A stretch of DNA of 62,500 nt from Pelagibacteraceae bacterium AG-325-E08 (GTDB taxonomy: Bacteria; Pseudomonadota; Alphaproteobacteria; Pelagibacterales; Pelagibacteraceae), in NCBI GenBank assembly GCA_003282985.1, contig QBYE01000004.1, forward strand, positions 1-62,500, written 5' to 3'. A program made the position numbers and the translations under genes. This document shows, one piece after another, positions 7,965 through 24,936 of the stretch. The notes below the pieces were generated by a model. It made no database searches, had not been told where the DNA came from, and saw nothing but the letters and a program-made list of their open reading frames with translations. Numbering within the stretch: position 1 is the first letter of the stretch; each line of letters starts with the position of its first letter.

Positions 7965-7993
7965 TTGACTTTTATTTTCTCTTGATGTATAAA
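7965..7993 (+). promoter_or_regulatory. sigma-70-like promoter for the rmuC array
   Basis: TTGACT (7965-7970), a 17-base spacer and TATAAA (7988-7993) make a near-consensus promoter. Transcription would start near 8000, giving about 180 bases of untranslated leader before rmuC, which is unusually long for this compact genome. Confidence 0.6.
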
Positions 7994-8009
7994 GAAACTA
8001 CTAAATTTA

Positions 8010-8108
8010 AAGCTACTTGTTTAGATGCAGATTGTTTAGTTGTCACTTTCATCTCATTTTTACTCAGCATTAAATTTTTAAATACGAAGCTACTAGTTTA
8101 GATGCGGA
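8010..8108 (+). repeat. pair of 22-base direct repeats in the rmuC leader
   Basis: AAGCTACTTGTTTAGATGCA+GA (8010-8031) and AAGCTACTAGTTTAGATGCG+GA (8087-8108) match at 20 of 22 positions, 77 bases apart start to start. Both lie in the predicted leader. They could be repeated RNA motifs, operator copies or a site duplication left by an insertion. Confidence 0.6.
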
Positions 8109-8153
8109 GTAACTTTCTTTCTGTTATCCTTTCTAAACTTCCATTTAAACTAA

Positions 8154-8175
8154 CCTTCGTGAACAAATGAAGGAG
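8154..8175 (+). promoter_or_regulatory. hairpin overlapping the rmuC ribosome-binding site
   Basis: CCTTC (8154-8158) can pair with GAAGG (8169-8173), which contains most of the AAGGAG Shine-Dalgarno sequence (8170-8175) of rmuC. The stem is 5 bp with a 10-base loop. If it forms it would lower initiation at the first gene of the array. Confidence 0.35.
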
Positions 8176-8179
8176 AAAA

Positions 8180-9094
8180 GTGTTGGAATATTTAGGTTTT
8201 GGAGCATTAATTGTTTCACTAGTTTTGTTTTTTTTGGTTTACAAAAAAGCTAATAATAAAGAAAATTCATCAGAAAATGATCAAATCAGCTTAAGCGATA
8301 TTAACGAAAGATTGGGTATCATTGATAGTGCTCAACAAAATATAGAAGAATTAAATAAGAAATTAATAGATTTTGAAAACCTTTTTAGTGACAAATCTAA
8401 AAGGGGTAAACTTGGAGAAGAATATCTTGAGGATATAATTAAGGATTGTTTGGTAAAAAAACACTATGATTTTCAGCACACCTTAACAAATGGTAAGAGA
8501 GTTGATTGCTTATTGACTTTTGAGTCGGAATCCACAAATGAAAAAATTTGTATCGACTCAAAATTTGTTTGGGAAAACTATGAAAAGTTTAAACAAGAAT
8601 CAGACGAAAATACAAAAAAAAATTTATTCAAAGAGTTTGAGAAAGATGTAAATGTTCATATTAAAGTTATTTCTGAAAAATATATTATTCCAGGAGAGAC
8701 AGCAAATTTAGCTTTAATGTTCGTAGCCTCAGAAGGAGTATTTAGGGAAATTTGTGAAATTTCCGAGGATTTTATAAAAACAGCTCGTCAAAAAAATGTA
8801 ATTATTACTAGCCCTAATACTATGTGGGCATTTTTGAGAACTTATAGATTGTTAATTCAAAATAGAGAAATGTATGAACAGACCCATATAATTCAAAAAG
8901 AAGTTTCAGCATTAATACAAGTAATTAATACATTTAATACAAAGTTTAATGAATTAGAAAGTCGACATGGAAAAAATTCTCAAACTATCGAGGAATTAAA
9001 AACCTCAGTTAGTAAAATAACCAAAACATCAAATAAAATACAAAACTTAGATTTGGATGAGAAAACAGATCTTATTAACAAGAAAGTAGTATAA
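8180..9094 (+). CDS. rmuC: RmuC-family DNA recombination protein
   Basis: RmuC is a membrane-anchored PD-(D/E)XK-like nuclease family protein; in E. coli its loss raises inversion at short repeats. Seen: an N-terminal membrane helix (about residues 5-21), a short coiled coil, then the core with GKLGEEYLEDIIKD, a catalytic-looking VDCLLTF...CIDSKFVWE (D...DxK), and the ETANLALMFVASEGVF block. The start is GTG at 8180 after a clear AAGGAG; at 304 residues it is shorter than E. coli RmuC (475). It is the first gene of the co-directional array, and sbcB begins three bases after its stop. Confidence 0.9.
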   Translation: MLEYLGFGALIVSLVLFFLVYKKANNKENSSENDQISLSDINERLGIIDSAQQNIEELNKKLIDFENLFSDKSKRGKLGEEYLEDIIKDCLVKKHYDFQHTLTNGKRVDCLLTFESESTNEKICIDSKFVWENYEKFKQESDENTKKNLFKEFEKDVNVHIKVISEKYIIPGETANLALMFVASEGVFREICEISEDFIKTARQKNVIITSPNTMWAFLRTYRLLIQNREMYEQTHIIQKEVSALIQVINTFNTKFNELESRHGKNSQTIEELKTSVSKITKTSNKIQNLDLDEKTDLINKKVV

Positions 9095-9097
9095 TTA

Positions 9098-10561
9098 ATG
9101 CATTATGTAGTTTGGGATTGTGAGACAGATTCGGCCGTCACAGCGTTTGCAACTATGTTAGAGGTTGGAGCTGTTTGTTTAAATAGTGATTTTAAACAAG
9201 TAGATCAATTTGAAGCACGATGTAGATTGCCCCAAGACCGCATACCTACAGCAACAGCTCTTTGTATTAATAAATCTAATGTAGATTTGTTGACTAAAGG
9301 AAATTACTCACACTATCAAATGATAGGAGTCCTTGAACAAACATTTAGAGGATGGGCTAAAAAATATGGTCCATTAACCTTTATGGGCTATTCGTCGATA
9401 AATTTTGATGATGAAGTACTTAGGAAAGAATTTTTTAAATCACTGAGAAAACCATATCTAACAAACACTGAAGGGAATATGAGAACTGATGTTCTCAATA
9501 TTGTAAGAGCTGCGTTTGCTGTTGATGATAAAATTTTAAATACAGAATTGAATGAAAAGGGAAATGCTTCAATGAAGTTAGAAAGTTTATCAAGACTAAA
9601 TGGTATAGAGTCAATCAACGCTCACAGCGCTTTGGCAGACACTATAATGACTGTAAAAGTACTAGATTTGATTAAAAAAAAACAACCAAATTTATGGCCA
9701 GAGTATTTTAAAACTAGCAGTAAAGTAATTGTTGAAAATATTATCAAACAAGAAAAGATTATTACAATTCAAGAATCATTTTATGGAAAAAATAAATTGT
9801 TTTGTTGTGCACCCCTACATCCTAAGGCATGTGAACATCCTTATTATAAAGGCTGGTATCAAGCAGTAGATTTGAGGGCAGATATTGAATTAATTCAGAA
9901 ATTTGATTACAGTGATTTAAAGAGAGAAACAAAAAAACCACCAAAGTTTATAAGAACGGTCCGTTCTAATAAGGCCCCTATAATTTTAGATCAAAGTTAT
10001 TCAATGAAAATTGAACCTTATAATAAAATTGATCCTAATGTTTTAATGAAGCGGGCAGAATTAATGAAGACTAATGAAAAATTTTCAAATGACATCATAA
10101 ATATTTTAAAAGAAACAGCAGAAGAAAAAATGGACTCTGCTACACAAGTAGATGAAGAGCCAGAGGAAACTTTATATTCGGGAGGTTTTAAAAAATTAAA
10201 CGAGGATGCTTTTTTGTTTGATGAGTTCCACCAAGCACCCTGGAAAGACAAACTAAGTATATTAAATAAATTTAAGGATGAAAGGCTGGTTCAATTTGGT
10301 CAACAACTTATTTATAATGAAACACCTGATGTCCTTCCAAAAGAAATTCAAAAAAAAATAAAGAGAAAAATTGCAGAAAGAATTTTTAGTACCAATAATG
10401 AAAAATGGACAACCATTGAAGATTTTCATGAAGACTGGCGTAATATTTATGAAAATGAAGACAAGATGTTTTCATTTAAGTCTAATGATGAAAAAATGAA
10501 ATTCTTAGATGGCATTAAGGAATACGTAGATAACTTAGAACAAAAATATATGGACACATAA
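9098..10561 (+). CDS. sbcB: exodeoxyribonuclease I
   Basis: Exo I degrades single-stranded DNA 3' to 5'. The N-terminal half is a DEDDh exonuclease: WDCETD (Exo I motif), then SSINFDDEVLRKEFF (Exo II), and HSALADTIMT (Exo III His and Asp). A central SH3-like part and a C-terminal helical domain follow (PWKDKLSILNKFKDERLVQF), giving 487 residues, the normal Exo I size (E. coli 475). It lies three bases after rmuC and one base before the next gene. Placed beside RmuC and a DUF2130 protein, it gives the array a run of DNA-end-processing enzymes. Confidence 0.9.
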   Translation: MHYVVWDCETDSAVTAFATMLEVGAVCLNSDFKQVDQFEARCRLPQDRIPTATALCINKSNVDLLTKGNYSHYQMIGVLEQTFRGWAKKYGPLTFMGYSSINFDDEVLRKEFFKSLRKPYLTNTEGNMRTDVLNIVRAAFAVDDKILNTELNEKGNASMKLESLSRLNGIESINAHSALADTIMTVKVLDLIKKKQPNLWPEYFKTSSKVIVENIIKQEKIITIQESFYGKNKLFCCAPLHPKACEHPYYKGWYQAVDLRADIELIQKFDYSDLKRETKKPPKFIRTVRSNKAPIILDQSYSMKIEPYNKIDPNVLMKRAELMKTNEKFSNDIINILKETAEEKMDSATQVDEEPEETLYSGGFKKLNEDAFLFDEFHQAPWKDKLSILNKFKDERLVQFGQQLIYNETPDVLPKEIQKKIKRKIAERIFSTNNEKWTTIEDFHEDWRNIYENEDKMFSFKSNDEKMKFLDGIKEYVDNLEQKYMDT

Positions 10562-10562
10562 A

Positions 10563-10997
10563 ATGGTGAAAAAAATATTAAAACTATTTAAAAAAAAGTT
10601 TAAGAATAAAAAAACAATTCAAGAGCCAAAGAAAGCTGAGGTTATAAATTTTGTAAATAAATCCAAACAAAATAATAAAATCCAAACAGAAAGGATGGAA
10701 ACTAAAAAAATGGATAATTTAGCTAGAGAGGTAGTTGATAATTATTTTAATGCATCAACAAAAAGCTTTTTAGATATGGGTTATTGTTCTTATATAATTT
10801 TATATAGGCTCTTGCAGCGAATGCTTTACCATCTTAGCTATCCTGTTTATCGTCATTATTTAAATTATACCACTAAACAAATGGTTAATAATCATAAGCA
10901 ATGGTTACATGATTTTAAAGAGTGGAATGAAGCAAGTTCTGAACGTAAACTACCTGGAGAAAAAAAAGAAGATTCTGAGAATGAAACAATACACTAG
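10563..10997 (+). CDS. hypothetical protein, 144 residues
   Basis: Not recognised. A lysine-rich, probably disordered N-terminus (about residues 1-55) precedes a helical region rich in aromatic residues (YCSYIILYRLLQRMLYHLSY, PVYRHYLNYTTKQ) that could be amphipathic or membrane-associated. The end is acidic (GEKKEDSENE). Its ATG is two bases after the sbcB stop, so it is certainly in the same transcript. The basic N-terminus would suit binding of nucleic acid or membrane. Confidence 0.65.
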   Translation: MVKKILKLFKKKFKNKKTIQEPKKAEVINFVNKSKQNNKIQTERMETKKMDNLAREVVDNYFNASTKSFLDMGYCSYIILYRLLQRMLYHLSYPVYRHYLNYTTKQMVNNHKQWLHDFKEWNEASSERKLPGEKKEDSENETIH

Positions 10998-11022
10998 TAA
11001 GGTATGGGAATAAAGAAAAGAC

Positions 11023-12162
11023 ATGAAACAGCAAATTAAGTGCCCACATTGTAATAAAGAATTTACTATAGAAGAGATTGTACAACATGAAAATGAAGAG
11101 TTTAGAAAAAAGCTTGAAAAACAAGAACAGCAAAAAGCAAAAGAAAAACAAAAAGAATTAGAACAAAAACTTGCTCTTAAAATTGAGAAAGAAAAAGAAG
11201 CACATCAGAAACAATTAGAAAAAATAAAATTGGACGCTGAAAAGAAACAAAAAGAAGAAATTAAAAAACTATCTGCAGCTGAAATAGAAAAAGTAAAAAA
11301 AACAGCAAATGATTACTTAAAAAAACAAAAAGCAGATTTTGAAATTAAAGCAAAACATGACCAAGATAAAGAAAGAGAGAAATTAGAAGCCATTATTGCA
11401 GAAAAAGAAAAAGCTCATCAAATCGATTTAGATAGGATGCGTAGAAAAACAGAAGAAGCTGCGAGAATTGCTAGTCAATCTCCATCAGAACGAAAAGGGG
11501 AAATTAGAGAAGAGTTGTTAGAGGGGTTCTTAAAAAAAGAATTTCCAACAGATAAATTCATACCAATTAAAAAAGGTCAACGAGGTGCTGATGTTATACA
11601 GTCAGTAGTAATTAAAGGTGAAGCTATTGGTAATATTCTTCATGAAAGTAAAGACGTAATTAATTTTGATGAAAAGTGGGTTCAAAAATTGTTAGATGAT
11701 ATGTCAAAAGTTGATGCAACAGTTGGATTTATCTTTACAAAAGCTATGCCAAGAAAATCTAAAGGTTTTGTAGAAGAGCGAGAAAATGGCCGAGTAATAA
11801 TTTGTTCTGAATATACAATTTTAAAACAATTAGTTTCAATTACTAGAAAAATCATACAATCCGACAAAGCCAATCTTGCTATTAATGAAGATGAAATTTC
11901 ATCAAAACTTAAAAATTTATTTGATTATTTAAATAGTAATGATTTTAAAATTCAAACTAGAAAAATATTTAATGGAATTAAAAGAGATAGTGAACAAATC
12001 GATAAAGATGAAAGATCATTTGATAATCAAATTAAAAATAGAAAGAAAAGTTTAGACGAAAGTAGAAAGAATATTAATAATGTCGTAACGTCTCTTATTT
12101 CAAATGCGGATTTACCTGAAGATCTTTTAGATACAGATGATGATAACTTTTTAATAGAATAA
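11023..12162 (+). CDS. DUF2130 family nuclease-like protein
   Basis: An N-terminal half zinc ribbon (IKCPHCNKEFT) is followed by about 130 residues of lysine/glutamate coiled coil. The DUF2130 domain comes next: SPSERKGEIREELLEGFLKK, GQRGADVIQ, then ILHESKDVINFDEKW, whose D...ExK layout resembles the PD-(D/E)XK active site. I recall a link between DUF2130 and RmuC-like nucleases. At 379 residues it is close to the family's usual length. It is 25 bases after the previous gene. The second RmuC-like protein in one operon is notable. Confidence 0.85.
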   Translation: MKQQIKCPHCNKEFTIEEIVQHENEEFRKKLEKQEQQKAKEKQKELEQKLALKIEKEKEAHQKQLEKIKLDAEKKQKEEIKKLSAAEIEKVKKTANDYLKKQKADFEIKAKHDQDKEREKLEAIIAEKEKAHQIDLDRMRRKTEEAARIASQSPSERKGEIREELLEGFLKKEFPTDKFIPIKKGQRGADVIQSVVIKGEAIGNILHESKDVINFDEKWVQKLLDDMSKVDATVGFIFTKAMPRKSKGFVEERENGRVIICSEYTILKQLVSITRKIIQSDKANLAINEDEISSKLKNLFDYLNSNDFKIQTRKIFNGIKRDSEQIDKDERSFDNQIKNRKKSLDESRKNINNVVTSLISNADLPEDLLDTDDDNFLIE

Positions 12163-12179
12163 CTAAAAATTTGAGTCAA

Positions 12180-12797
12180 ATGGAAATTACTTATTTTATA
12201 TATCTTTTGTTGGTGCTACTAGCTGTCATAATTATTGCACAATTTTGGATATATAAAAAATCAAATAAAGATTTTGAGGATTTGTTTGAGGGTTTAGACG
12301 AAGAATTTAAAGAAAACGAACTACGTATAAAAAAAATGTATGATGAACTAAAGTCAGTTAATGATCTTCTTCAAACTTATAATAAGATAATTACTGAAAA
12401 ATCAGCAGAACTAGAGCATTACAAGAACGCAAACGTTGATAGTAAACAAAAAGGTCTATTCTCGAGCCTTATTAGCATTTCAGATTTTATCGATAAATTT
12501 AATCAAGATAACCCATCAATAGATGAAAAGACAAAAAGTTACTTAATCGCAATTCAGGACAAGCTTGAAATAGCATTATCCTCAACAGGAATTGAAAAAT
12601 TTGAACCAAATTTAAATGAAAATATTATGGAAGTAATTGGCTGTACTCCATCTAAAAAAACAAAAAAAACTACAGATATCAACAAAATCAACTTGATAGC
12701 TTCAGTAATAAAACCAGGGTATCGAATTTTAATTAGAGATGATAAGTTTAATTACATAAAAAATGCTGAGGTAGAAATATTTGAATTGGAAAAATAA
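12180..12797 (+). CDS. membrane-anchored GrpE-like exchange factor
   Basis: GrpE proteins release ADP from Hsp70. Here an N-terminal membrane helix (about residues 3-22, TYFIYLLLVLLAVIIIAQFW) comes first, then a long acidic coiled coil (about 28-75), a helical bundle (SSLISISDFIDKFNQDNPSI...YLIAIQDKLEIAL), and a C-terminal beta-wing-like segment VIKPGYRILI...KNAEVEIFE that parallels the GrpE ending (VLQKGYTL...RAAMVTV). The stop overlaps the Hsp70 start by one base. ATG at 12180 is preferred to a TTG at 12171. Housekeeping GrpE is soluble, so an anchored form implies a membrane-located Hsp70. The family call is by pattern and context. Confidence 0.65.
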   Translation: MEITYFIYLLLVLLAVIIIAQFWIYKKSNKDFEDLFEGLDEEFKENELRIKKMYDELKSVNDLLQTYNKIITEKSAELEHYKNANVDSKQKGLFSSLISISDFIDKFNQDNPSIDEKTKSYLIAIQDKLEIALSSTGIEKFEPNLNENIMEVIGCTPSKKTKKTTDINKINLIASVIKPGYRILIRDDKFNYIKNAEVEIFELEK

Positions 12798-14344: not shown

Positions 14345-16609
14345 GTGAATATAATTAAAGATTTAGTCAAAAAATTAAAAAAAGATAAAAAAGATATAGC
14401 AATTCTTGGAATTATTCTTCCAGATGAAAAATTAGCTAAAAACAAAAAATTAAAACCAATAATATCTCAAGTTAAAGAAGATGGTCCTGCTTATGAGGTT
14501 TTAAAAGAAAATGATCAAATTCTAAAAATTAATAAAAAAAAAATTAATACTCTTCAAGATTGGAGCAATGAGCAAAAAAAATTTAAACCAAATGAAATCG
14601 TTATAATTAGGGTTAAGAGGAGAAATCAAGAACTTAATAGAGCAATAAGAACTATATCTTTAGAAGAATTCGATAAACCAAAACAAAAACATTTAGTAAG
14701 ACTTGGAATATATTTTTCTGAAGGAACGGAAGCTAAAATATTTGCAGTAGAAAAAAAATCTGTTGCTAAAAATAAATTAAAGTCTGGAGATATAATACTA
14801 GAAGTTAATGGTAAACTTATTAATAATCAAGATGAATATAGTAAGGTAACAAAAAAAGTTTTATGGGGTCAAACAATAAATTTTAAAATTTTAAGAAAAA
14901 ATAAAAAAATAAATTTTAAAATAAAATCTAATTCATTTTATCATTATAAGTTAAATCATTTAACTTTTGGAATTAAAACGAAGCTGTTTAAAAAAAAATA
15001 TTTAAAAGTAATCAATACTCAAAGTTTATATTCTGAGGGAAATTTGATCAAAAAAGGAGATATAATTATTGATTTGACTACTCAAGTGAACGGAAAACAA
15101 ATAAAAAAACAATTTATTGATGATGATGATTTATTTAGGACTATAGTTGAAAATTTTGAACCTACACAAAGAGTCAATTTCAATATTTTAAGAAAAAAAA
15201 AGGAGTTAAAAGTTGAAATAGTTTTTAAAAATTTCTTTGATTTTCTAGAAAAAAATGAAGATTTAACTAGAAACAGTGGCTTAACTAAACCCCAAGCAGA
15301 CTTTATGCTGAGAGAATATGAAAACGGGGATTATCAAGGTCTTTCTGATGAACTAAGAGCTAAAATAGTTAAAATGGACCTTCAGGAGGAATTAAGTGTA
15401 AGTGATGAAGAATCTTTGTTTATTTCATCATATGTAAAAAAAGAGAAAGTATCAGGTAAAGATTCTTTCGTTGTTTATTATGATAGTTTTCCAAGCACCT
15501 ATAATTTTGAAGAAGAGAAAGTATATTTAAAAATATATGTATTTGATGTAACTGATCTAGATCAAAAAGAATATGAAGATATTTACTACCAAACAGAGGA
15601 TTATGAAGATAATCCTAGATTAGAGAATTACATAAGGGATAATTGCAATGTTATAAAATCTAATAATTTTGATTGGAGTGAGGGCTCATCTGTTTTGGTT
15701 CAAACAAAATTATTAAACCCTTATGACGACCCACCTGAAAAAATTGCCTTTCCATATTCTGTAATGAATTTTCCTAAAGCGGGTAAAAGAAAATTAGCTT
15801 TTAGATCATTTATTTGTAAGAAAGATTTAAAATTTCATGAAACAGAAGGAAGGCCTTTAAATGGAAGTTTTATTAATTACCGTCCAGAACATTTTAAATT
15901 GGATTTATATGGAAATCCTTTTGACGAATATGGCTCCTATCCAGAAATATTAGGTTACGATTCAATTGAAATTGAAGCTGAGTATAAACAAGCAGGTTAT
16001 TTGGGGGTTAATAGACAAAAATTAGACTCATTAATTATTCCATTAGGTTATTCAATTGCCAGCATTAATAATGATTCATTAAAATCAATAGAATTAGTTA
16101 AGGATAATATTGCTTATAAAGGGGATAGAACTTTGGAAGGTGGAATTAATCAAGCTTTAAATTTAAAGATGATTTATGAGAAATCTCAAAAAAATACAAT
16201 TGATCCACAAATTTACTTAAAAGAGATTAAAAATTTTTCAAAAATAGACGAACGGTATGAGGTTATTAATTTATTATTAAATATAGCCACTCATGACAAC
16301 ACACTAACCTCTACAGAAAATAAGTTTTTAGATGATGTAGCCGAAAAATTAGAATTAAATCAATCAAAGTATTTAGAAATAAAAAAAATAGAAACTGCAT
16401 CTTTAAAATCTGTGGATTTTGGAGATAAAGCTGATGAAAGTATATTTGGTCTTTCAAAAGATATGGACGATAAAACAAAGTGTAGAATTTTAAGACAAGA
16501 GTACTCAAGATGGAATTCACAAACAAACAATAGCAATAAAGATAAAAGAGTAAGAGCTAAAGAAATGGTGAACTTAATTGCTAATTTGAGAAAGCAGTAT
16601 AATTGCTGA
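14345..16609 (+). CDS. triple-PDZ protein with TerB-like C-terminal region
   Basis: Three consecutive PDZ-like units are visible (about residues 18-100, 113-200, 205-300), each with the pattern 'xGDxIlxinxk.i' (for example LKSGDIILEVNGKLI and IKKGDIIIDLTTQVNG). A beta-rich middle region (about 380-600; CNVIKSN, YDSIEIEAEYKQ) is unassigned. Near the end EVINLLLNIATHDNTLTSTE+NKFL resembles the TerB/TerB-like helical fold, and the last 40 residues (LRQEYSRWNSQ...AKEMVNLIANLRKQY) resemble tails I associate with TerB or J-type chaperone partners. GTG start directly after the hsp70 stop. No signal peptide, so cytoplasmic. A likely adaptor between Hsp70 and the protease encoded next. Confidence 0.7.
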   Translation: MNIIKDLVKKLKKDKKDIAILGIILPDEKLAKNKKLKPIISQVKEDGPAYEVLKENDQILKINKKKINTLQDWSNEQKKFKPNEIVIIRVKRRNQELNRAIRTISLEEFDKPKQKHLVRLGIYFSEGTEAKIFAVEKKSVAKNKLKSGDIILEVNGKLINNQDEYSKVTKKVLWGQTINFKILRKNKKINFKIKSNSFYHYKLNHLTFGIKTKLFKKKYLKVINTQSLYSEGNLIKKGDIIIDLTTQVNGKQIKKQFIDDDDLFRTIVENFEPTQRVNFNILRKKKELKVEIVFKNFFDFLEKNEDLTRNSGLTKPQADFMLREYENGDYQGLSDELRAKIVKMDLQEELSVSDEESLFISSYVKKEKVSGKDSFVVYYDSFPSTYNFEEEKVYLKIYVFDVTDLDQKEYEDIYYQTEDYEDNPRLENYIRDNCNVIKSNNFDWSEGSSVLVQTKLLNPYDDPPEKIAFPYSVMNFPKAGKRKLAFRSFICKKDLKFHETEGRPLNGSFINYRPEHFKLDLYGNPFDEYGSYPEILGYDSIEIEAEYKQAGYLGVNRQKLDSLIIPLGYSIASINNDSLKSIELVKDNIAYKGDRTLEGGINQALNLKMIYEKSQKNTIDPQIYLKEIKNFSKIDERYEVINLLLNIATHDNTLTSTENKFLDDVAEKLELNQSKYLEIKKIETASLKSVDFGDKADESIFGLSKDMDDKTKCRILRQEYSRWNSQTNNSNKDKRVRAKEMVNLIANLRKQYNC

Positions 16610-17739
16610 TGAATTTTTTAGATAGATTTAGATATAGATATGATAATTTAAAAGAGTTAGATGCTAATATTTCTTCAGACAAAAAAAATTTAAATTATAA
16701 CAATCCAATTTTAAAATCATTGCTGTCTACGTCAGTGAAAGTGACACCAGAAATTTTTCCAAAAATTGATAATTGTATTCAATCTGTCTTCAAAAAATTG
16801 GAATTAAAAAATAATTTTAATTTTTTTATAACTGCTAATCATAATCAAACCCAGGCTTCATGTGCGATGATGCCAGAAAGTGACTCAGCAGAAATAATTA
16901 TAACTTCTAGGATGATTGAGTTATTAAATATTTTTGAGCTTGCTTATGTTTTGGGTCACGAAATTTCTCATCACTATTATCAACACAATATTTATCCCTC
17001 TCCAAATCAAGCAAAAAGCAAAATGGAATTATTAAAGTTATTACATTTGTCTAGAGCATCAGAGATTTCAGCAGACCGAGCAGGATTTCTTGGTTCTGGA
17101 GATATTGAAAATTCACTTAAAGCAATGCTTAAAATTGCAAGTGGTCTTAGTGAAAAACATTTAACATTTAATTTTTCATCCTATTTAGATCAATTAAGAG
17201 AATTAAAGCAGATCAAAGGGGATCAAAATCAAATGTACAGCACACACCCTTCTTTTTTAAACAGAATGCAAGCATTAGTTTGGTTTTCGATGAGTCACGA
17301 ATATCATGAATATTTTGAGACAAATAAAAAAGGTGTTTATGATTTAAAAACAGTTGATCAGAAAATTAATGAAAGCATAAAAAAAGTTATTGGCAATGAA
17401 TTAGATATATCAACTAAAGAAATTTTTAGTAATGCATTAATGTGGTGCAGTTTAAAAATCTTTATTGCAGACAATAAATTTACAAAAAAAGAGCAAAAAC
17501 TATTTGAAAAAAACTTTGGTGAAAAAAATACAGCAAGTATTCTCTCGCTTCTTAAAATTTCAAAGCCAAAATCAATAGAGGTAAAAATAAACAACGCTTT
17601 AAATGAAGCAACCAATCTATTAATGGCTGAACGTGAAAAATTATTTAATGAGTTAAAAAAACTAAATTCTATAGCCGAAAGTGATCAAAAATTAGTTCAA
17701 AGTTCATTAAAGCAAATAAAGAAAAAACTTAAAATTTAG
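16609..17739 (+). CDS. soluble M48-type zinc metallopeptidase
   Basis: The zinc site is plain: YVLGHEISHHY (HExxH at about residues 117-121) and SEISADRAG (third ligand Glu at about 152), followed by STHPSFLNRMQAL, the M48 'THP' loop. Unlike HtpX there is no membrane helix, so it is cytosolic. The C-terminal third (SNALMWCSLKIFIADNKFTK+KEQKLFEKNFG) has a TerB-like helical look similar to the preceding protein. ATG at 16609 overlaps the upstream TGA by one base; an in-frame TTG at 16603 is less likely. A protease under the control of an Hsp70/PDZ pair is suggested by position. Confidence 0.85.
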   Translation: MNFLDRFRYRYDNLKELDANISSDKKNLNYNNPILKSLLSTSVKVTPEIFPKIDNCIQSVFKKLELKNNFNFFITANHNQTQASCAMMPESDSAEIIITSRMIELLNIFELAYVLGHEISHHYYQHNIYPSPNQAKSKMELLKLLHLSRASEISADRAGFLGSGDIENSLKAMLKIASGLSEKHLTFNFSSYLDQLRELKQIKGDQNQMYSTHPSFLNRMQALVWFSMSHEYHEYFETNKKGVYDLKTVDQKINESIKKVIGNELDISTKEIFSNALMWCSLKIFIADNKFTKKEQKLFEKNFGEKNTASILSLLKISKPKSIEVKINNALNEATNLLMAEREKLFNELKKLNSIAESDQKLVQSSLKQIKKKLKI

Positions 17740-17743
17740 TTAT

Positions 17744-20700
17744 ATGAGTGATTTTTTAAGTATAAATGGAGCTTTAAGCCAAAGCTCTTTTTTAAAATTA
17801 AAAAAAAATAAGAAATTTAAGCATCTAGAAATCAGTTATGGAAATATTGATGATGATTGGAGTTCAATTGGAAACCTTCAAGATTTAAGAACTATTTCAG
17901 TCAAGGATAGTTTTATTGATTTTCAAAGTTTTTATAAAGCATTAGGTAATTTAAAAAAATTAGAAAAGATTACTTATAATTATTATTGTTATTTTAATAA
18001 AAAATCTAAAGAAGAATTAAAGGGCGTCAAAATTAGTAATAAATATTTTCAGATAGATTTTCCTGAAAATAAAAAAATAGATTTTGATTTTAATAATTAT
18101 TTAAAAGAAACATATAAAAATAAATTTCATTCATTATTTGAAATAAATAATTCTCATAAGGTTTTTAAAAATCTTTCAGAAATTTTGTTTACTAATTTTG
18201 ATACTTTCAAACAATACAGTGAAACTTTTGATAGCACTGATAAAATTTATGTTAATAAAAATATTTACTGGGGAATGGAAAGTTCAATTTTAAGAAAATT
18301 CAAATCATTAAAAAATATTACAATAAATAATGGAAGTTACATGGATATTTTAGAATTTGGATTAGAAAAATATCTAGAAGAAATTTCAAAAAAGAAACTG
18401 CCTGTATCTCTTAATAAATACTTTAAACCTCTAAATAATTATCCTGAAGATTTGAATTTACTTAACATCATTTATAGCACTGACTCTGATCAAAATAATT
18501 TTATTTTTAAAAATAAATATGAACTAGAAAAAAAAATTGAAGATATAAAAGTTCATAAATATGCTTTAACAATAAATGAAAAAAATCTCATTAAACAAAA
18601 TGACTATAACAAACCATTTACATTTTTAAAAAATAAAAAAATTAATAAGATTTTAAGTCATAAATTTGACCATATAATTTTTTCAGATTGCCATGAATTT
18701 TTAGATAATAAAAATACACATACTAATGGATTAAAAAAAGTAGAAATTTATTTAGACTTACTTAAAGATCAAAATATAAAGAATATTTTTTTTGATATAT
18801 CTAAATCTTCCACATATACTGAATGGTCTTCATCGAATTTTTCTTTTTTAATTAAATTTATTTATGAAATTAATATTAAATTTCCAAGTATAACATTTTT
18901 TTTATACCATAAAGAATTAAACCAATTACTAAAAGGAAATCAGAGTTCAGATAAATTTGAAAAACACCTTGCCTATTTGATCAATTCAATAAGCCTTAAT
19001 CATCTCCATGAAAAAGTAAAATTTATTGGAGCAGATAAAAATCAACTTAATAAGTTCTTAGAAAATTATATCAATAAAGGTGTTGACCAAATAGTTGTTG
19101 TTGATGATTTTTTATATGATGCTGCAAAAACATTACCAAATTTAGCTCTGATATATGGTGAAGACTTAGATGATATTAAGCATAAATTTCCAAAATATAA
19201 TGAGGATGAATATTACGAGAAAAGATGGAAAAATATAAATTTTTCACTCAAGGAAATATTTTGTGAAATATTAAGGATTGCAGGTTTTATTTCTGATAAT
19301 TTTCAAACAGATAATACAAAACTTTCAATGTTGGTTAAAAAAAATTATTTAGAAAAATTAGATAATTTTAAATTTAAGAAAGTATTTTACTATCTTGGTT
19401 CACCTTTACATTTAATTACACACAATATGGAGCCCAATAGAAAAAATTGGAATATTAAGAAAAATTTGAATTTATTAAAACCAAATGATGATATTCAAAA
19501 AAATGATTTAAAAGATAAAATTCTTAACTATGCAAAAAAAAGTCTAACCGAAATAAAGCAATCAATAGATATAGACTCAAATAAAATAAAAATAGATGAG
19601 AAAATATTTGATGCTCAACATTACGAAATTCTGAGAGACACTGGGATCAACACTCAAGGTTTTGAATATTTAACTCATTTGTGGATAGAAGGTGTTGTGC
19701 CTTGGCAGCAAAAATACATTAAACTGTCAAAACTAGACGAAATTATACCAACGAAAAGATTAGAAAATTTAAGATTAGGTGACTGTATTTACTTTAGCGA
19801 TCTAAAATTACCATTAATGAATAGTTTAAAGGTTCTTGAACTTCACCCAAACATAAATCATCATTATGACGAAAATGTTGGAGATAAATATAGATTGATA
19901 AGTGGATTTGAAAATTGTCCTAATTTAGAAAAATTAAAAATTGAGCATTTAAATCATTTTAACAATAAAAAATATTTTCCTCTAACATTAGGTAGTACTT
20001 TAGTCGATTGGGAGCTAAGAAAGAATGATAACTTTTCAATTATTAGATTAGATTTAAATAGATTAAACGAGCTTACGAAATTAGAAGAATTAGAAATTCA
20101 AGAAATACAAGCATCAAATGTTAGAGAAATAAAATATTTACCAAATCTAAAAAAAATTCATCTTATAATTTTTCATAATACTACAGATGATCATTTAAGT
20201 AAGTATGCTGCAGAAAAAGAAGTTACAGATAAAGATTTATTATTTTTTAAAGGAAGTAAAAAAATTAATGATATTAATTTATCCATTGGTTCAATCATTG
20301 ATAATGAAGAACCTGGCACAGAACAATGTTATTCAAGTTATGACGGTAATGGTGATTTTATAGAATATATAAATTATAAAATAGAAAATTTAACTTTATC
20401 TATAAATTTTAATTTAAAAAATCAAATTAAAATACAAGATATTATTACTAAAGTTACTAATCGTTTTTTAAATTTAAAAAAGTTAACTTTGAGATTTGCT
20501 ATAGCTGTGACTACAGATAATTTTAATTTTGAAGAAAATAGATATTATAAATCTCTTGAAACGCAAACTATTGATTTTTCTAAATTTGCAAAATTAAAAA
20601 AGTTGACCGATCTATCATTTATGGGTCAAGATCAGCATAGTTTTTTAAAATTTAAAACTATCAATTTAGACTATATTGTTAATCTTAAAAAACTTAAAAA

Positions 20701-20980
20701 TATTGATTATTGTTGGAGTTCTGTAAGTTTAGCTGAATTTAGAAAGGCAAGAATTGCGTTAAAAAATGAAAACTATGATGATCCTAAATATTATGATCCA
20801 GATTATGAATATTATGCCGAGGAAAATGAAAATTATAAAAAAAATTGGTCGCGAATGAAAGAAATAAACTCAGATTCTTGGGATTGGTATTCATTAGAAG
20901 ACAGATTTTTAGAGGTTGAAAGGGAGAAAAATAAAAAGAAATTTGAAAAAAAAACGATTATACAAAAAAAGAAAAATTAA
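17744..20980 (+). CDS. large leucine-rich-repeat-like protein
   Basis: The protein has 1078 residues with no signal peptide. Irregular LRR-like units occur in the N-terminal part (FKHLEISYGNIDDDW, IGNLQDLRTISV, LGNLKKLEKITY), in the region around 730-860 (CPNLEKLKIEHLNHF, LTKLEELEIQEI, LPNLKKIHLIIFH), and towards the end (FLNLKKLTLRFAI, FAKLKKLTDLSFM). The middle (about 320-560) is an unassigned alpha/beta region (KNIFFDISKS, VDQIVVVDDFLYDAA). It starts four bases after the M48 gene. In defence loci such repeats often recognise a protein target; that role here is inference. The C-terminus may be cut short by a homopolymer frameshift. Confidence 0.7.
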   Translation: MSDFLSINGALSQSSFLKLKKNKKFKHLEISYGNIDDDWSSIGNLQDLRTISVKDSFIDFQSFYKALGNLKKLEKITYNYYCYFNKKSKEELKGVKISNKYFQIDFPENKKIDFDFNNYLKETYKNKFHSLFEINNSHKVFKNLSEILFTNFDTFKQYSETFDSTDKIYVNKNIYWGMESSILRKFKSLKNITINNGSYMDILEFGLEKYLEEISKKKLPVSLNKYFKPLNNYPEDLNLLNIIYSTDSDQNNFIFKNKYELEKKIEDIKVHKYALTINEKNLIKQNDYNKPFTFLKNKKINKILSHKFDHIIFSDCHEFLDNKNTHTNGLKKVEIYLDLLKDQNIKNIFFDISKSSTYTEWSSSNFSFLIKFIYEINIKFPSITFFLYHKELNQLLKGNQSSDKFEKHLAYLINSISLNHLHEKVKFIGADKNQLNKFLENYINKGVDQIVVVDDFLYDAAKTLPNLALIYGEDLDDIKHKFPKYNEDEYYEKRWKNINFSLKEIFCEILRIAGFISDNFQTDNTKLSMLVKKNYLEKLDNFKFKKVFYYLGSPLHLITHNMEPNRKNWNIKKNLNLLKPNDDIQKNDLKDKILNYAKKSLTEIKQSIDIDSNKIKIDEKIFDAQHYEILRDTGINTQGFEYLTHLWIEGVVPWQQKYIKLSKLDEIIPTKRLENLRLGDCIYFSDLKLPLMNSLKVLELHPNINHHYDENVGDKYRLISGFENCPNLEKLKIEHLNHFNNKKYFPLTLGSTLVDWELRKNDNFSIIRLDLNRLNELTKLEELEIQEIQASNVREIKYLPNLKKIHLIIFHNTTDDHLSKYAAEKEVTDKDLLFFKGSKKINDINLSIGSIIDNEEPGTEQCYSSYDGNGDFIEYINYKIENLTLSINFNLKNQIKIQDIITKVTNRFLNLKKLTLRFAIAVTTDNFNFEENRYYKSLETQTIDFSKFAKLKKLTDLSFMGQDQHSFLKFKTINLDYIVNLKKLKNIDYCWSSVSLAEFRKARIALKNENYDDPKYYDPDYEYYAEENENYKKNWSRMKEINSDSWDWYSLEDRFLEVEREKNKKKFEKKTIIQKKKN

Positions 20981-21086: not shown

Positions 21087-24000
21087 ATGAACATAAATTT
21101 ATATTCACCAACAATGCTTGTAAAATATATTAAGTGTAATCATATCATTTCAAATGATTTTAACGAAAAAAAATTAAAGCTTAAAAAAAATACTAGAACA
21201 GTAGCTGATAAGTTAAGATTGGAAAAAGGTTTGCTGCATGAAGTATGGTATTTTAGTGAATTAAAAAAAAAATATTCAAAAGTTAAAGATATAAAAAAAC
21301 TAAAAGGTTTATCCAAAGAAGAAAAAATAAAAGAAACAATTAAAGCTTTAAAAGAAGGGTATGATCTTATTTATGGTGGTTGGTTAAAATCTGGAAATTG
21401 GAGTGGAGAGTTGGATTTTTTAGAAATTAACAAAAAAGTTAAATCTGATTTAGGATCATGGAGTTATGAAATAACTGATACTAAGCATAGTTCAAAAGTA
21501 AAAGGTGATCATATCTATCAACAGTGCATTTACACAAATTTATTAAAAGATGTGCAAGGTATATTACCTGAAAAATTTTATATTTTACTTAAAGACAAAA
21601 CAAAACAACCAATAAAAATAAAAGAAGTTTATGACACATTTTTATTTCATAAAAATTCATATGAAAAATTTTTATTAAATGGAATTTCAAAAACTAAACC
21701 TGAAAAATGTTCCTTTTGTAACTTATGTGATTGGTCAAATCATTGTGATAATGAATGGAGAAATAAAAGACATCCTAATCAGGTTTTAGGAAATAATAGA
21801 AAAAATTGTCAAAAGTTTTATCAAGCCGGTATCAAGACATATGATGAAATAGCAAAACTAGATTATAAAACTAAAATAGAAGGTTTAAGAGAAGAAACAA
21901 AAATAGAAAGAATTGAACAAGCTAAGTTACAAATAGAAGCAGAAAAAAAAGGAACTCCAATTTTTAAACCTAAAGAAGAAAATTTTGTACTCAATAAAGG
22001 CTTTAATCTTTTACCAAAAGAATCTGCTTGTGATTTATTTTTTGATATTGAAGGGGTACAAGATTATGTTTTTCCTGGAAGACTAGAATATTTATTTGGA
22101 ATTTATTATGAAGAAGATGGAGAAAAAATTTTTAAACCTTTTTGGGCCCACAACAAAAAAGAAGAAAAAAAAACTGTTATAAATTTTTTTGAATTTACTA
22201 AAAAACATTTTACAAAATATCCTCATGCAAAAATTTACCATTATGCACCCTATGAAATAACAACATTAGAGAGGTTAACCTCAATGTTAAAAGTTCATGG
22301 AGTTGATTATGATCATTATTTAAATCTTGGAAAGTTCGTTGATTTATTTAGAGTTATTAAACAAGCAATAAATGTATCTCAAAAAAGTTATTCGCTTAAA
22401 GATATAGAAAAATATTATGATTTTAAAAGATCAGGAGATATCCAAAAAGGTGATGTTTCTGAAGAGTTTTATATTCAATGGATGGAAACAAAAGATCAAA
22501 AATTATTAGATCAAATAGGTGAATATAATAAACAGGATTGTTTAAGTACTTTTAAGCTAAGAAAATGGTTGTTAAGAATTAAGCCAGAACAAACAAAATG
22601 GTTCGTACCTGAAAAAGAGCAAATTGATCTAAGACCTCATGAAGAGGTTTTATTAGAATACCAAAAAAAATTTAATGAATCAAAATTGAAAGATAAACCA
22701 ATGATTAAATTACTTTCAGATATAATAGGATATTACTTAAGGGAAATGAAACCGTCTTGGCGAGAATTTTTTGACAGAAAACATTTGTCCCACGAAGAGT
22801 TAATTGATGAAAATGAGTGTATAGGAAATATGAAATTAGTTTCACAACTTCAAGACAAGAGAAGTTTTGAATTTAAATTTTTGTTCCCACCGCAAGAATA
22901 TAAATTAAAGAAAGGAGATAGAGTCATTATTGCTAATAATAACGACCCAGATAGAGATGATAGTGCTGGTACAATTAAAGAGTTAGATCAGGTTAATAGA
23001 TCTGTAGTATTGAGAAAAGGCATTTCAAAAGAAAAAAAACAACTTCCAAGAACTTTATCGATCGGTAAGAAGTTAATGAAACATTCACTGTACGATAAAT
23101 TAAATAAAAATATATACGATTTTTGTGAAAATATTTTAGAAAATAAAAAAGGTTATGATGCTTTAAAATGTTTCCTAAATAGAGATATACCAAATATAAA
23201 AGACTTAAAATCGGGCGATAAAATTATTAAATCTGAAAATTTTATTAAAGAAATTCCTGATATAATTTCAAGATTAAACTCTAGTTGTATTTTTATTCAG
23301 GGTCCTCCAGGAACCGGAAAAACATTTCATAGTTCTAATGCTATAGTTGAATTATTAAAAAAAAATAAAAAAGTTGCTGTTACTGCAAACTCTCATAAAG
23401 TAATTCACAACTTATTAGAAAGGGTAGAAAATATAGCAACTAAGCAAGATTTTAATTTTAAAGGCCTTAAAAAAGGCAACCCAAATGATAGGGATAGTTT
23501 TTATGATGGAAAACTAATTAAAACAGAGAGCAATGAAAAGAAATATATTGACGGATTAAAAGATAATAAAATTCTACTTTATTCTGGCACAAAATTTCAT
23601 CTATCTTCATGGTATTATCGAAGTAAGATTGATTATCTCTTTATAGACGAGGCAAGCCAGTTTTCTTTAGCAGATTTAATTGCACTAGGTGGGATTACAA
23701 AGAATATTGTATTAGTTGGTGATCAACTTCAGCTGGGGCAGCCGACGCAGGGGAGCCATCCAAATTTGTCTGGATATTCAGTTTTAGATTATTTACTTGA
23801 AGGAAAAGATACAGTGCCTGCTAATATGGGTATATTTTTAACAAGAACATATAGAATGCATCCTAATATTAATGCTTTTATATCTGAAAATTTTTATGAG
23901 AATAAACTTTTGACTGATATTTCGGCTGAAAGTAGAAAAGTAAATTATCCCAAAAATTTTTTTATAAATAATGATGGTATTCATACTATTTTAATGGATC

Positions 24001-24461
24001 ACATTGATTGTAGTCAAACAAGTGAGGCAGAATTTAAAAAAATAGATGAAATTATCAAAAAATTATTAGGTCAAAAATTTATAGACTCAGACAAAACAGA
24101 AAGACCTTTAATGATATCAGATTTTTTAATTATTTCTCCGTATAATGCTCAAGTAAATTTTTTATTAGAAAGACTTCCTAAGGGCACGCGCTGTGGTACT
24201 ATAGATAGGTTTCAGGGGCAAGAAGCGCCAATTACGATAATAAGTATGACAAGTAGTGATGTGGAAAATTTACCAAGAGATAAGTCTTTCTTCTTTAACC
24301 GTAACAGATTGAACGTAGCAGTATCTCGAGCACAATGTTCATCAATAATCTTATTTAATCCTAACCTATTAGAATCTGCGCCTACAGATTATGAACAATT
24401 TAAATTAATTAATAATTTTCAAAAATTGATGAAATTCGAGGTAAAAACTGGTATCAATTAA
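21087..24461 (+). CDS. Fe-S RecB-like nuclease / RNase H-like / SF1 helicase fusion
   Basis: This 1124-residue protein is of the TM0106-type RecB-nuclease-helicase architecture. N-terminal Cas4/RecB-like nuclease: LEKGLLHEVWYF, GELDFLE, YEITDTKHS (ExDxK), QQCIYTNLL, and cysteines C208, C211, C214 and C220 suited to a 4Fe-4S cluster. Middle: an RNase H-like exonuclease domain starting CDLFFDIEG (about 315-500; YNKQDCLSTFKLR). C-terminal SF1 helicase: Walker A GPPGTGKTFHS (about 739), DEAS (about 854), VGDQLQLGQPTQG, RTYRMHPN, SPYNAQV, DRFQGQEAP and NVAVSRAQ. It most resembles Dna2-like enzymes. A 106-base gap separates it from the LRR gene. It suits DNA-end or foreign-DNA processing. Confidence 0.9.
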   Translation: MNINLYSPTMLVKYIKCNHIISNDFNEKKLKLKKNTRTVADKLRLEKGLLHEVWYFSELKKKYSKVKDIKKLKGLSKEEKIKETIKALKEGYDLIYGGWLKSGNWSGELDFLEINKKVKSDLGSWSYEITDTKHSSKVKGDHIYQQCIYTNLLKDVQGILPEKFYILLKDKTKQPIKIKEVYDTFLFHKNSYEKFLLNGISKTKPEKCSFCNLCDWSNHCDNEWRNKRHPNQVLGNNRKNCQKFYQAGIKTYDEIAKLDYKTKIEGLREETKIERIEQAKLQIEAEKKGTPIFKPKEENFVLNKGFNLLPKESACDLFFDIEGVQDYVFPGRLEYLFGIYYEEDGEKIFKPFWAHNKKEEKKTVINFFEFTKKHFTKYPHAKIYHYAPYEITTLERLTSMLKVHGVDYDHYLNLGKFVDLFRVIKQAINVSQKSYSLKDIEKYYDFKRSGDIQKGDVSEEFYIQWMETKDQKLLDQIGEYNKQDCLSTFKLRKWLLRIKPEQTKWFVPEKEQIDLRPHEEVLLEYQKKFNESKLKDKPMIKLLSDIIGYYLREMKPSWREFFDRKHLSHEELIDENECIGNMKLVSQLQDKRSFEFKFLFPPQEYKLKKGDRVIIANNNDPDRDDSAGTIKELDQVNRSVVLRKGISKEKKQLPRTLSIGKKLMKHSLYDKLNKNIYDFCENILENKKGYDALKCFLNRDIPNIKDLKSGDKIIKSENFIKEIPDIISRLNSSCIFIQGPPGTGKTFHSSNAIVELLKKNKKVAVTANSHKVIHNLLERVENIATKQDFNFKGLKKGNPNDRDSFYDGKLIKTESNEKKYIDGLKDNKILLYSGTKFHLSSWYYRSKIDYLFIDEASQFSLADLIALGGITKNIVLVGDQLQLGQPTQGSHPNLSGYSVLDYLLEGKDTVPANMGIFLTRTYRMHPNINAFISENFYENKLLTDISAESRKVNYPKNFFINNDGIHTILMDHIDCSQTSEAEFKKIDEIIKKLLGQKFIDSDKTERPLMISDFLIISPYNAQVNFLLERLPKGTRCGTIDRFQGQEAPITIISMTSSDVENLPRDKSFFFNRNRLNVAVSRAQCSSIILFNPNLLESAPTDYEQFKLINNFQKLMKFEVKTGIN

Positions 24462-24465
24462 AGTC

Positions 24466-24936
24466 ATGGATCATAACCCTTATAACTTAAAAACATTAGA
24501 TGAAAAACCTTCAGGTTATTTAGATGCACATCAGTTAATAAATTTTTTAGCCAAGAATAAGATACCCATTAAAAGGATGGATAATCTTCCACGGTTTGCT
24601 CATCAAAACAAAATAGAAATGAAAAAAATTACTAGGGATGGATCAGCTGGCTCAACTCCCACAATATATAAGACGCCAAATTCATCACAAATCAAAAAAA
24701 TTTTAGAAAGTATGAAAAAAAACAACAATAGTGTTCTAGGAAAGCAGTTATTGAAAAATAAAAAAGAAAAAATATTAGAAATATTTGATAAAGCTGAAGA
24801 CAAAAAAGAAACAAGAACATCAATTGCAGATAAAGTTGCAAAAAGCTTGGGTTTAAACTGTAATAGAAAATTAGTAAGAGCAGTTTTAGACGCTAAAAGA
24901 TCATCTAAGTTGGAGAAGCTTAAAAAAATTTCTTAA
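24466..24936 (+). CDS. small basic protein, possibly DNA-binding
   Basis: The protein has 156 residues with high lysine content. The N-terminal part (SGYLDAHQLINFLAKNKIPI+KRMDNLPRFAH) has the look of a small helix-turn-helix or winged motif, followed by a linker (GSAGSTPTIYKTPNSS) and a helical C-terminus (RTSIADKVAKSLGLNCNRKL). I cannot name a family. It begins four bases after the helicase gene and is the last gene of the island, so it may be an accessory or regulator of the helicase. Confidence 0.6.
   Translation: MDHNPYNLKTLDEKPSGYLDAHQLINFLAKNKIPIKRMDNLPRFAHQNKIEMKKITRDGSAGSTPTIYKTPNSSQIKKILESMKKNNNSVLGKQLLKNKKEKILEIFDKAEDKKETRTSIADKVAKSLGLNCNRKLVRAVLDAKRSSKLEKLKKIS

What the first reader, a model, noticed from the sequence alone, without database searches (positions are those of the whole stretch)
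7965..24936. Chaperone-protease-nuclease array: candidate undescribed defence or DNA-stress system
One near-consensus promoter is followed by eleven co-directional genes, with gaps mostly of 0-25 bases: rmuC, sbcB, unknown, DUF2130, anchored GrpE-like, lid-less Hsp70, PDZ/TerB-like, soluble M48, LRR-like, RecB/RNaseH/SF1 fusion, small basic protein. At least four products process DNA ends and five look like a sense-and-cleave protein module. The array sits between core genes (hisG, trxA), next to a dead methylase and a phage-type nuclease. No described system I can recall has this full set; Shango (TerB-like, ATPase, helicase) shares only parts. In a streamlined SAR11 genome, about 17 kb of such genes must earn its keep. 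Anti-phage function is inference.
Basis: partly seen in the sequence, partly recalled or inferred. Interest (0 to 1): 0.9.

Follow-up and report, generated by a model that had tools for sequence, protein, structure and literature searches.

The report
Insulated Hsp70–metalloprotease cassette in SAR11
An insertion in an ocean bacterium carries a recurring four-gene unit that pairs a private, rewired Hsp70 chaperone machine with a protein-cutting enzyme; it is probably a mobile stress or virus-defence device, but the eleven-gene array it was reported in is not one system.

Summary
The genes are real, but the unit was drawn wrongly. rmuC, sbcB and the nearby PD-(D/E)XK gene belong to the SAR11 backbone. 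Genes 3-11 are a 14.5-kb insert between sbcB and trxA; 27 of 29 other congeners with both genes have only 37-138 bp there. The insert is mosaic: its flank genes and TM0106-type RecB-helicase occur elsewhere without the rest. Inside lies the novelty, a linked cassette: membrane-anchored GrpE-like protein, lidless Hsp70, TerB protein, soluble M48 protease. I found 12 loci, 8 of them outside SAR11, those without the window's nuclease or LRR-like genes. Its Hsp70 keeps the ATPase residues but has lost both DnaK residues that grip a J-domain's HPD (R167 replaced in 10 of 10, Q378 in 11 of 11; both kept in 17 of 17 other Hsp70s). Its partner ends in a J-like domain without HPD (12 of 12). I read it as an insulated Hsp70 machine coupled to a protease. 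Three giant proteins fuse M48 (and TerB) to a defence-type helicase-nuclease, one beside Gabija. Anti-phage function is plausible but unproven.

The parts
7263..7955 (+). PD-(D/E)XK nuclease; SAR11 backbone gene, not part of the insert
   Evidence: Homologue in the rmuC-sbcB block of 12 of 15 fetched relatives; weak Pfam PDDEXK_1
7965..8179 (+). Leader of rmuC: promoter-like TTGACT-17-TATAAA and two copies of AGCTACTNGTTTAGATGC (8011-8028, 8088-8105)
8180..9094 (+). rmuC; only RmuC found in this (88.7% complete) genome, backbone position, divergent form shared with G012
9098..10561 (+). sbcB (exonuclease I), backbone gene; left boundary of the insert
   Evidence: 53 of 61 genomes incl. own, next to trxA in most congeners
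10563..10997 (+). Gene 3, unknown; insert flank gene shared with G012 (62%) and G022 (31%)
11023..12162 (+). DUF2130 protein; shared with G012 (70%), distant copy (27%) in the G015 locus
12171..12797 (+). Cassette gene 1: membrane-anchored GrpE-like protein (predicted nucleotide-exchange factor)
   Evidence: Pfam GrpE 2e-5, just under cut-off; alignment A7; hydrophobic N-terminal segment
12797..14344 (+). Cassette gene 2: lidless Hsp70, ATPase residues kept, J-contact residues lost
14345..16609 (+). Cassette gene 3: three PDZ domains (this copy only), beta-rich region, TerB region, C-terminal J-like domain without HPD
16603..17739 (+). Cassette gene 4: soluble M48 metalloprotease, HExxH and third-ligand motif intact
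17744..20980 (+). Large LRR-like protein, fast evolving; LRR nature unproven
   Evidence: Weak Pfam; distant homologue beside the G015 cassette; model poor
21087..24461 (+). TM0106-family RecB-like nuclease / RNase H-like / SF1 helicase; ordinary family, separate from the cassette
24466..24936 (+). Small basic protein, unknown; insert flank gene shared with G012 (62%) and G022 (55%)
25033..25347 (+). trxA; backbone gene, right boundary of the insert

Best explanation
Window 12171-17739 is a transferable four-gene cassette, inserted with unrelated accessory genes between sbcB and trxA. It encodes an insulated Hsp70 machine coupled to a protease. SHOWN: conserved linkage and order; intact ATPase and zinc-protease motifs; loss of both Hsp70 residues that hold a J-domain's HPD, and absence of HPD in the partner; hydrophobic N-terminal segments in the GrpE-like and most TerB proteins; no lid. 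INFERRED: the Hsp70 ignores the cell's DnaJ-type proteins and is driven only by its own TerB/J-like partner through a rewired contact, with the anchored GrpE-like protein resetting it at the inner membrane. Without a lid it would hold folded or transient clients briefly rather than refold them. The TerB/J-like adaptor would hand the client to, or unleash, the soluble M48 protease, which cuts it or a downstream target. The trigger is most likely an invader- or stress-derived protein at the membrane. In SAR11 the LRR-like protein may add recognition. The most likely role is intracellular conflict (phage defence).
For: Linkage: TerB protein precedes M48 in 12 of 12 loci; Hsp70 precedes TerB in 11 of 11 where the contig reaches (one truncated, one split by a frameshift); a GrpE-like gene precedes Hsp70 in 8. 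Nearly empty site (37-138 bp) in 27 of 29 other congeners with both flank genes. R167 replaced (E,E,E,E,N,Y,Y,Y,Y,Q) in 10 of 10 and Q378 replaced by Y in 11 of 11 evaluable cassette Hsp70s; linker leucines 390 and 392 polar or glycine in 11 of 11. All four positions kept in 17 of 17 other Hsp70s (5 SAR11-order DnaKs, 12 from five cassette carriers and three related genomes). PMC8215388 (passages): D35 of HPD binds R167 and Q378 of DnaK. J-like domain: no HPD in 12 of 12; HHalign P 9.6e-5 to ten DjlA-type J-domains and 0.0019 to four DnaJ ones, against 0.18-0.84 in 20 column shuffles; the highest-scoring solved structure confined to that segment is co-chaperone P58(IPK), rmsd 1.9 A over 57 residues, Z 7.0; TerB part matches the TerB part of DjlA-type proteins (P 2e-11; those proteins had been retrieved with this family's profile). 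HExxH and ExxxD in 12 of 12. Defence links: three giant fusions of M48, TerB (below cut-off in two) and a DUF4011/SF1/MTES_1575 helicase-nuclease (PADLOC PDC-S37 E <= 6e-150), one beside GajA/GajB; PbeA/PbeC or OLD-type ATPases close to rmuC in 3 of the 4 relatives whose neighbours I scanned.
Against: PADLOC has no hit at E <= 0.1 for the window's GrpE-like, Hsp70, TerB and M48 proteins; of three G886 cassette proteins only M48 gave a marginal capP match. The PADLOC hits near SAR11 backbone genes lie on the hisG side of the block, not in the sbcB-trxA slot, and I scanned only 4 of 15 fetched relatives. Several alphaproteobacterial cassettes sit among what I read as housekeeping genes (not searched); one is truncated and one split, which fits dispensability, not specifically defence. 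No match on plasmids or viral contigs. The J-domain assignment is moderate: HHalign probability 58% and 14%; Z 7 is within what the tool calls common arrangements for helices, and a designed helical protein (6.2) and 14-3-3 proteins (5.9) follow close behind. Foldseek gave nothing at E <= 0.001. The fusions link M48-TerB, not Hsp70, to defence. Clients, trigger and protease targets are unknown. Two of 11 complete TerB proteins, the window's among them, lack the N-terminal hydrophobic segment.
Confidence: 0.5

Rival explanations
1. The cassette is an envelope or proteotoxic-stress quality-control unit, like HscC with membrane-anchored DjlB/DjlC, that removes damaged membrane or newly exported proteins; its place near defence-type genes only reflects a shared variable region.
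For: Hydrophobic segments in GrpE-like and most TerB proteins; apparently housekeeping surroundings in several carriers (my reading); HscC/DjlC precedent at the plasma membrane (PMC8215388 passages); weak NCBIfam similarity of the M48 protein to HtpX and LoiP.
Against: Patchy: 3 of 101 SAR11-order genomes, 6 of 384 others of the class; M48-TerB is fused to defence-type helicase-nucleases in three genomes.
Confidence: 0.38
2. All nine inserted genes (10563-24936) act as one defence system, in which LRR-like recognition triggers the Hsp70-protease part, which releases the RecB-helicase nuclease.
For: One directional run with short gaps; G015 also has an LRR-like gene, a DUF2130 gene and a DUF2779/Cas4-like protein around its cassette; M48-TerB fused to SF1 helicase-nucleases elsewhere.
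Against: G012 has gene 3, a weakly LRR-like protein, DUF2130 and the basic gene without the cassette; G022 has the helicase (82%), gene 3 and the basic gene without it; 106-bp gap before the helicase; three helicase homologues on plasmids have other neighbours.
Confidence: 0.1
3. The Hsp70 is a degenerating DnaK paralogue with no function of its own.
For: One cassette Hsp70 is truncated and one frameshifted.
Against: Catalytic K70, E171, T199 and D201 kept in every sequence that covers them, protease motif kept 12 of 12, gene order kept across two classes.
Confidence: 0.04

Closest known systems
HscC-DjlB/DjlC and HscA-HscB specialised Hsp70 machines (PMC8215388, passages)
   Same: Dedicated bacterial Hsp70 with private co-chaperones, sporadic distribution, membrane link for HscC
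   Different: Cassette Hsp70 has no lid, its own anchored GrpE-like protein, a partner without HPD, and a protease; four second-copy Hsp70s that look HscA-like (recalled) keep R167 and Q378. HscC itself was not compared.
DjlA (TerB plus J-domain co-chaperone)
   Same: TerB then J-like domain; a profile of the cassette proteins retrieves DjlA-type proteins
   Different: No HPD, added beta-rich region, encoded with its own Hsp70 and protease; one member reaches only 23.9 of 162 bits on the NCBIfam DjlA model
GAP1-N2 GTPase conflict systems with HSP70, GrpE and DnaJ-FNIII (PMC7159879, passages)
   Same: A private Hsp70-GrpE-J set in a predicted conflict system
   Different: GTPase-centred; the words TerB and M48 do not occur in that text
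CoCoNuT CnuD Hsp70-like proteins (PMC11090510, passages)
   Same: Hsp70-like NBD/SBD in a predicted defence system
   Different: CnuD is described as having degenerate ATPase motifs; here the residues checked are intact; no McrBC-type gene in the window's insert
Shango and Bunzi (PMC10250203, PMC10952713, passages)
   Same: TerB domain; Shango also has a helicase and an ATPase
   Different: Described without Hsp70, GrpE or M48 in the passages seen; the window's TerB protein hits no PADLOC model (whether that release holds Shango was not checked)
RRDM island M48 (PMC12255303, passages)
   Same: M48 metallopeptidase in a functional anti-phage island
   Different: Type I RM, DarTG and a repressor; no chaperone gene among its seven ORFs
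PDC-S37/Hhe-type SF1 helicase-nucleases (PADLOC models)
   Same: Three such proteins carry an N-terminal M48 plus TerB part
   Different: Single giant protein; no Hsp70, GrpE-like or TerB cassette gene matched beside them

Membership tests
DnaK/HscA-type Hsp70 machine | J-contact residues R167 and Q378 and hydrophobic linker | tested here: not met
   Replaced in all evaluable cassette Hsp70s; kept in 17 of 17 others
DnaK/HscA-type Hsp70 machine | Full length with alpha-helical lid; passes a DnaK or HscA cut-off | tested here: not met
   About 500 aa, no lid; two members score at most 318 bits against DnaK and HscA cut-offs of 620 and more
Hsp70 superfamily | Actin-like ATPase with intact phosphate motifs plus substrate domain | tested here: met
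   Pfam HSP70 2e-86; catalytic residues kept
GrpE nucleotide-exchange factors | GrpE model at curated cut-off | tested here: inconclusive
   24.6 bits against 25.8; the G886 gene has no Pfam hit; conserved C-terminal pattern in A7
J-domain proteins (DjlA type) | HPD motif in a J-domain | tested here: not met
   HPD absent in 12 of 12
J-domain proteins (DjlA type) | J-domain fold after TerB | tested here: inconclusive
   Moderate profile and structure support
M48 metalloproteases | HExxH and downstream Glu ligand | tested here: met
   12 of 12
Shango | TerB protein with ATPase and DEAD/DEAH helicase genes | tested here: inconclusive
   No PADLOC hit for the TerB protein; the 8 non-SAR11 loci show no match to the window's helicase, but their neighbours were not scanned for other helicases
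Anti-phage defence system | Reduces phage infection | not testable with these tools
   Only neighbourhood and fusion evidence
TM0106 RecB-like nuclease-helicase | TIGR03491 domain above cut-off plus SF1 helicase | tested here: met
   224 bits against 97; AAA_12

The most novel reading that the evidence does not exclude
A further class of bacterial Hsp70 machine: an orthogonal chaperone-protease immune switch, in which the HPD-R167/Q378 contact has been rewired on both sides so that phage or host perturbation of DnaK/DnaJ cannot reach it, and in which the chaperone cycle gates an M48 protease at the membrane; the M48-TerB half has also been captured by helicase-nuclease immune proteins.
Probability: 0.3. 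Interest if true: 0.9.

Novelty: new variant of a known kind. Interest (0 to 1): 0.72.

Why it matters
The contact of a J-domain's HPD with Hsp70 is the standard way these machines are driven. A conserved family that has lost it on both sides while keeping the ATPase site would show how an Hsp70 machine can be insulated from the cell's other chaperones, and would make a chaperone-gated protease directly testable. It would also show that SAR11, with a streamlined genome, has a definable slot (sbcB-trxA) where such modules are swapped.

Tried and rejected
Single eleven-gene system: rejected on synteny. M48 C-terminal part as a TerB domain: HHalign P 0.08 and 0.009, not supported. LRR-like structure: pLDDT 40.7, inconclusive; a viral-contig scan for that protein found nothing. 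Foldseek on the TerB/J model: no hit at E <= 0.001; best by probability is 2h5n (PG1108). Plasmid searches for M48, TerB and the fusion N-terminus and viral-contig scans for M48: none. Rfam on 4700-26000: none at gathering score. Solo M48 proteins in 12 genomes (most about 400 aa) showed no cassette gene beside them by blastp, some on short contigs; one (G953, L118) has a 171-aa ORF with a weak TerB match (7e-5) about 1.3 kb away on the other strand. Literature: searches in an open-licence library listed no paper that, by its title and abstract start or by the passages I read in seven papers, describes a GrpE-Hsp70-TerB-M48 unit; the 2012 Ter-system paper I recalled (10.1039/c2mb25239b) is not held, so an earlier mention cannot be excluded.

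Dropped rows and limits: L043 (G159; Hsp70 split by a frameshift; only its C-terminal piece used, both pieces left out), L044 (G230; Hsp70 N-terminus missing; left out), L030 (contig ends before Hsp70). GrpE-like N-termini of L043, L047 and L109 are uncertain: I cut L043 and L047 inside longer ORFs and used the whole 403-aa ORF for L109. The L046 GrpE-like gene did not match by blastp; it is assigned by position and alignment. In some searches at most 5-7 candidates per genome were scored, so carriers may be missed. One search gave 22 genomes besides G000; they were not counted as carriers because the matches covered only the TerB and J part, and ten of them that I read carry HPD. In one search, 24 of 27 matching genomes match only the PDZ part and were not counted. 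In one search, G022's sbcB hit is a distant, inverted copy.


Full report
WHAT IS THERE. The helicase fusion is the TM0106 family (TIGR03491). The window is contig C4 of genome G000, 1.02 Mb in 34 contigs, 88.7% complete. Its nearest cassette relatives are uncultured Pelagibacteraceae single-cell genomes.

THE UNIT WAS DRAWN WRONGLY. sbcB is found in 53 of 61 genomes and trxA (or another thioredoxin) in 55 of 61, the window's own included. Of 29 other congeners with both hits, 27 have only 37-138 bp between them; G012 has 4.2 kb, G022 6.7 kb (its sbcB hit is a distant, inverted copy); the window has 14.5 kb. In the other family sampled the gap is 1.08-1.23 kb in 20 of 21, which in the one of these I fetched (G061) is rmuC, and 4.3 kb in G067. 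The usual congener order is hisG-rmuC-PD-(D/E)XK-sbcB-trxA-folC-accD. So rmuC, sbcB and the PD-(D/E)XK gene are backbone, and genes 3-11 are inserted. One RmuC was found in this genome; its form is the one shared with G012 (77%) rather than the commoner one (20-26% identity).

THE INSERT IS A MOSAIC. G012 carries gene 3 (62%), a weakly LRR-like 694-aa protein, DUF2130 (70%) and the basic gene (62%), but no chaperone genes. G022 carries the RecB-helicase (82%), gene 3 (31%) and the basic gene (55%). The helicase occurs in 3 of 60 other relatives at E <= 1e-30 and on 68 plasmid records, in 60 of them over at least 80% of its length. The three plasmid neighbourhoods I opened hold, between them, SIR2, DUF4062, multiubiquitin-ThiF-E2, WYL, dynamin and RmuC genes. 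On the hisG side of the same backbone block, G012 has PbeA (4e-133), PbeC (5e-13) and a PglW-like gene, and G004 and G003 have OLD/AriA-like ATPases next to rmuC; I scanned selected neighbours of 4 of the 15 relatives fetched, and G022's scanned gene gave nothing.

THE REAL FINDING: A FOUR-GENE CASSETTE. Starting from the TerB and M48 proteins I found 12 loci: the window; AG-414-L03 (G015); AG-435-J18; a Caspian MAG; AG-914-B16 (G090; contig ends); the genomes G332, G159, G230, G101, G313 and G134 of the same class; and G886 of another, unnamed class of the phylum. TerB precedes M48 in 12 of 12. Hsp70 precedes TerB in 11 of 11 that can be read (split by a frameshift in G159, truncated in G230). 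A GrpE-like gene precedes Hsp70 in 8, was not found in AG-414-L03 and the decayed G230 locus, and is not readable in two. The Hsp70 paralogue stands out from core DnaK in 2 of 101 SAR11-order genomes, TerB in 3 of 101. Outside SAR11 the 8 loci showed no match to the window's nuclease, DUF2130 or LRR-like genes in the flank examined. In G313 a C5 methylase lies nearby, with what I read as a recombinase; in G101 transposase-like genes (my reading).

ANATOMY. GrpE-like: hydrophobic N-terminal segment in 7 of 8 (the eighth was cut by me), coiled region and GrpE-like C-terminus. Hsp70: NBD and SBD-beta, no lid, a hydrophobic-acidic tail. TerB protein: hydrophobic N-terminal segment in 9 of 11 complete ones; the window copy has three PDZ domains instead; then a beta-rich part, TerB helices (Pfam TerB in 11 of 11 scanned; and in G886) and a C-terminal J-like hairpin. 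M48: no hydrophobic segment in 11 of 12; HExxH and ExxxD in 12 of 12.

THE J CONTACT IS GONE ON BOTH SIDES. In DnaK, R167 and Q378 bind D35 of the J-domain's HPD (PMC8215388, passages). In cassette Hsp70s R167 is replaced in 10 of 10 and Q378 is Y in 11 of 11; linker leucines 390 and 392 are polar or glycine in 11 of 11. Catalytic K70, E171, T199 and D201 are kept wherever covered. All 17 comparison Hsp70s keep R, Q and LLLD: five SAR11-order DnaKs and 12 from five carriers (G886, G101, G313, G134, G332) and three related genomes (G646, G978, G980), four of these 12 being second copies that look HscA-like (recalled). HscC was not compared. The partner's J-like end lacks HPD in 12 of 12. That it is J-like rests on HHalign (P 9.6e-5 to ten DjlA-type J-domains, 0.0019 to four DnaJ ones, 20 shuffles 0.18-0.84, and 0.19 against a TerB control), the order TerB then J as in DjlA, retrieval of DjlA-type proteins by the profile, and VIA-align (P58(IPK) residues 393-450, which I recall as its J-domain, Z 7.0, rmsd 1.9 A over 57 residues; unrelated helical proteins follow at 6.2 and 5.9). 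This is moderate support. Two readings remain: the contact was rewired (my choice) or J-coupling was lost.

LINK TO DEFENCE. Three giant proteins (1896-2073 aa) in three families fuse M48, a TerB match (1e-5, 3e-4, 9e-3; the last two under the cut-off), DUF4011, an SF1 helicase and an MTES_1575 nuclease; PADLOC matches PDC-S37 at E <= 6e-150 and Hhe. One lies beside GajA (2e-185) and GajB (3e-182), that is, Gabija. This is evidence for M48-TerB, not for the Hsp70 part. PADLOC hits none of the four window cassette proteins. Precedents: private Hsp70-GrpE-DnaJ sets in GAP1-N2 conflict systems (PMC7159879, passages), DnaJ-dependent phage sensing by bNACHT25 (PMC12169576, passages), an M48 gene in the RRDM defence island (PMC12255303, passages), TerB in Shango and Bunzi (PMC10952713, passage; PMC10250203, passages).

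TREES. Nine cassette Hsp70s form one side against five DnaKs (100/100), and SAR11 plus Caspian sequences group apart from the other carriers, among which the G886 sequence falls, in both the Hsp70 and M48 trees. This suggests transfer between classes but does not date it.

VERDICT. The reported array is not one system. The four-gene cassette within it is a coherent unit for which I found no description in the library searched. My confidence that it is a functional unit is about 0.9; that it works as an insulated chaperone-protease machine about 0.5; that its natural role is phage defence about 0.4.

Noticed in passing
window 8011-8028 and 8088-8105: Two copies of AGCTACTNGTTTAGATGC in the rmuC leader, both also exact in G012; an exact copy occurs in 16 of 61 genus genomes (own included), in at least seven of them 50-90 bp upstream of sbcB. 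Probably a regulatory element of the nuclease genes; no Rfam match.
   Followed up: partly
window 5357-5806: Truncated C5-cytosine methylase fragment on the minus strand, overlapping an unknown + strand ORF (4951-5496) whose homologue sits beside a distant sbcB copy in G022.
   Followed up: partly
L065 5725-11946, L120 2546-8407, L123 8701-14391: Giant M48-(TerB)-DUF4011-SF1-MTES_1575 proteins, the first beside Gabija; the N-terminal protease part on PDC-S37/Hhe-type proteins may be an immune architecture of its own.
   Followed up: partly
window 12797-14344 and cassette relatives: Cassette Hsp70s end in a hydrophobic-acidic C-terminal tail in most sequences, possibly a docking peptide for the protease or adaptor; the G886 ORF ends differently.
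   Followed up: no
L048 11979-18649: The complete SAR11 genome G012 carries PbeA, PbeC and a PglW-like gene beside the same backbone genes.
   Followed up: no
L118 (G953) 9833-13512: A solo M48 gene lies near a weak TerB match (7e-5) and what look to me like TerD-type genes; perhaps a tellurite-type locus with the same protease family.
   Followed up: no
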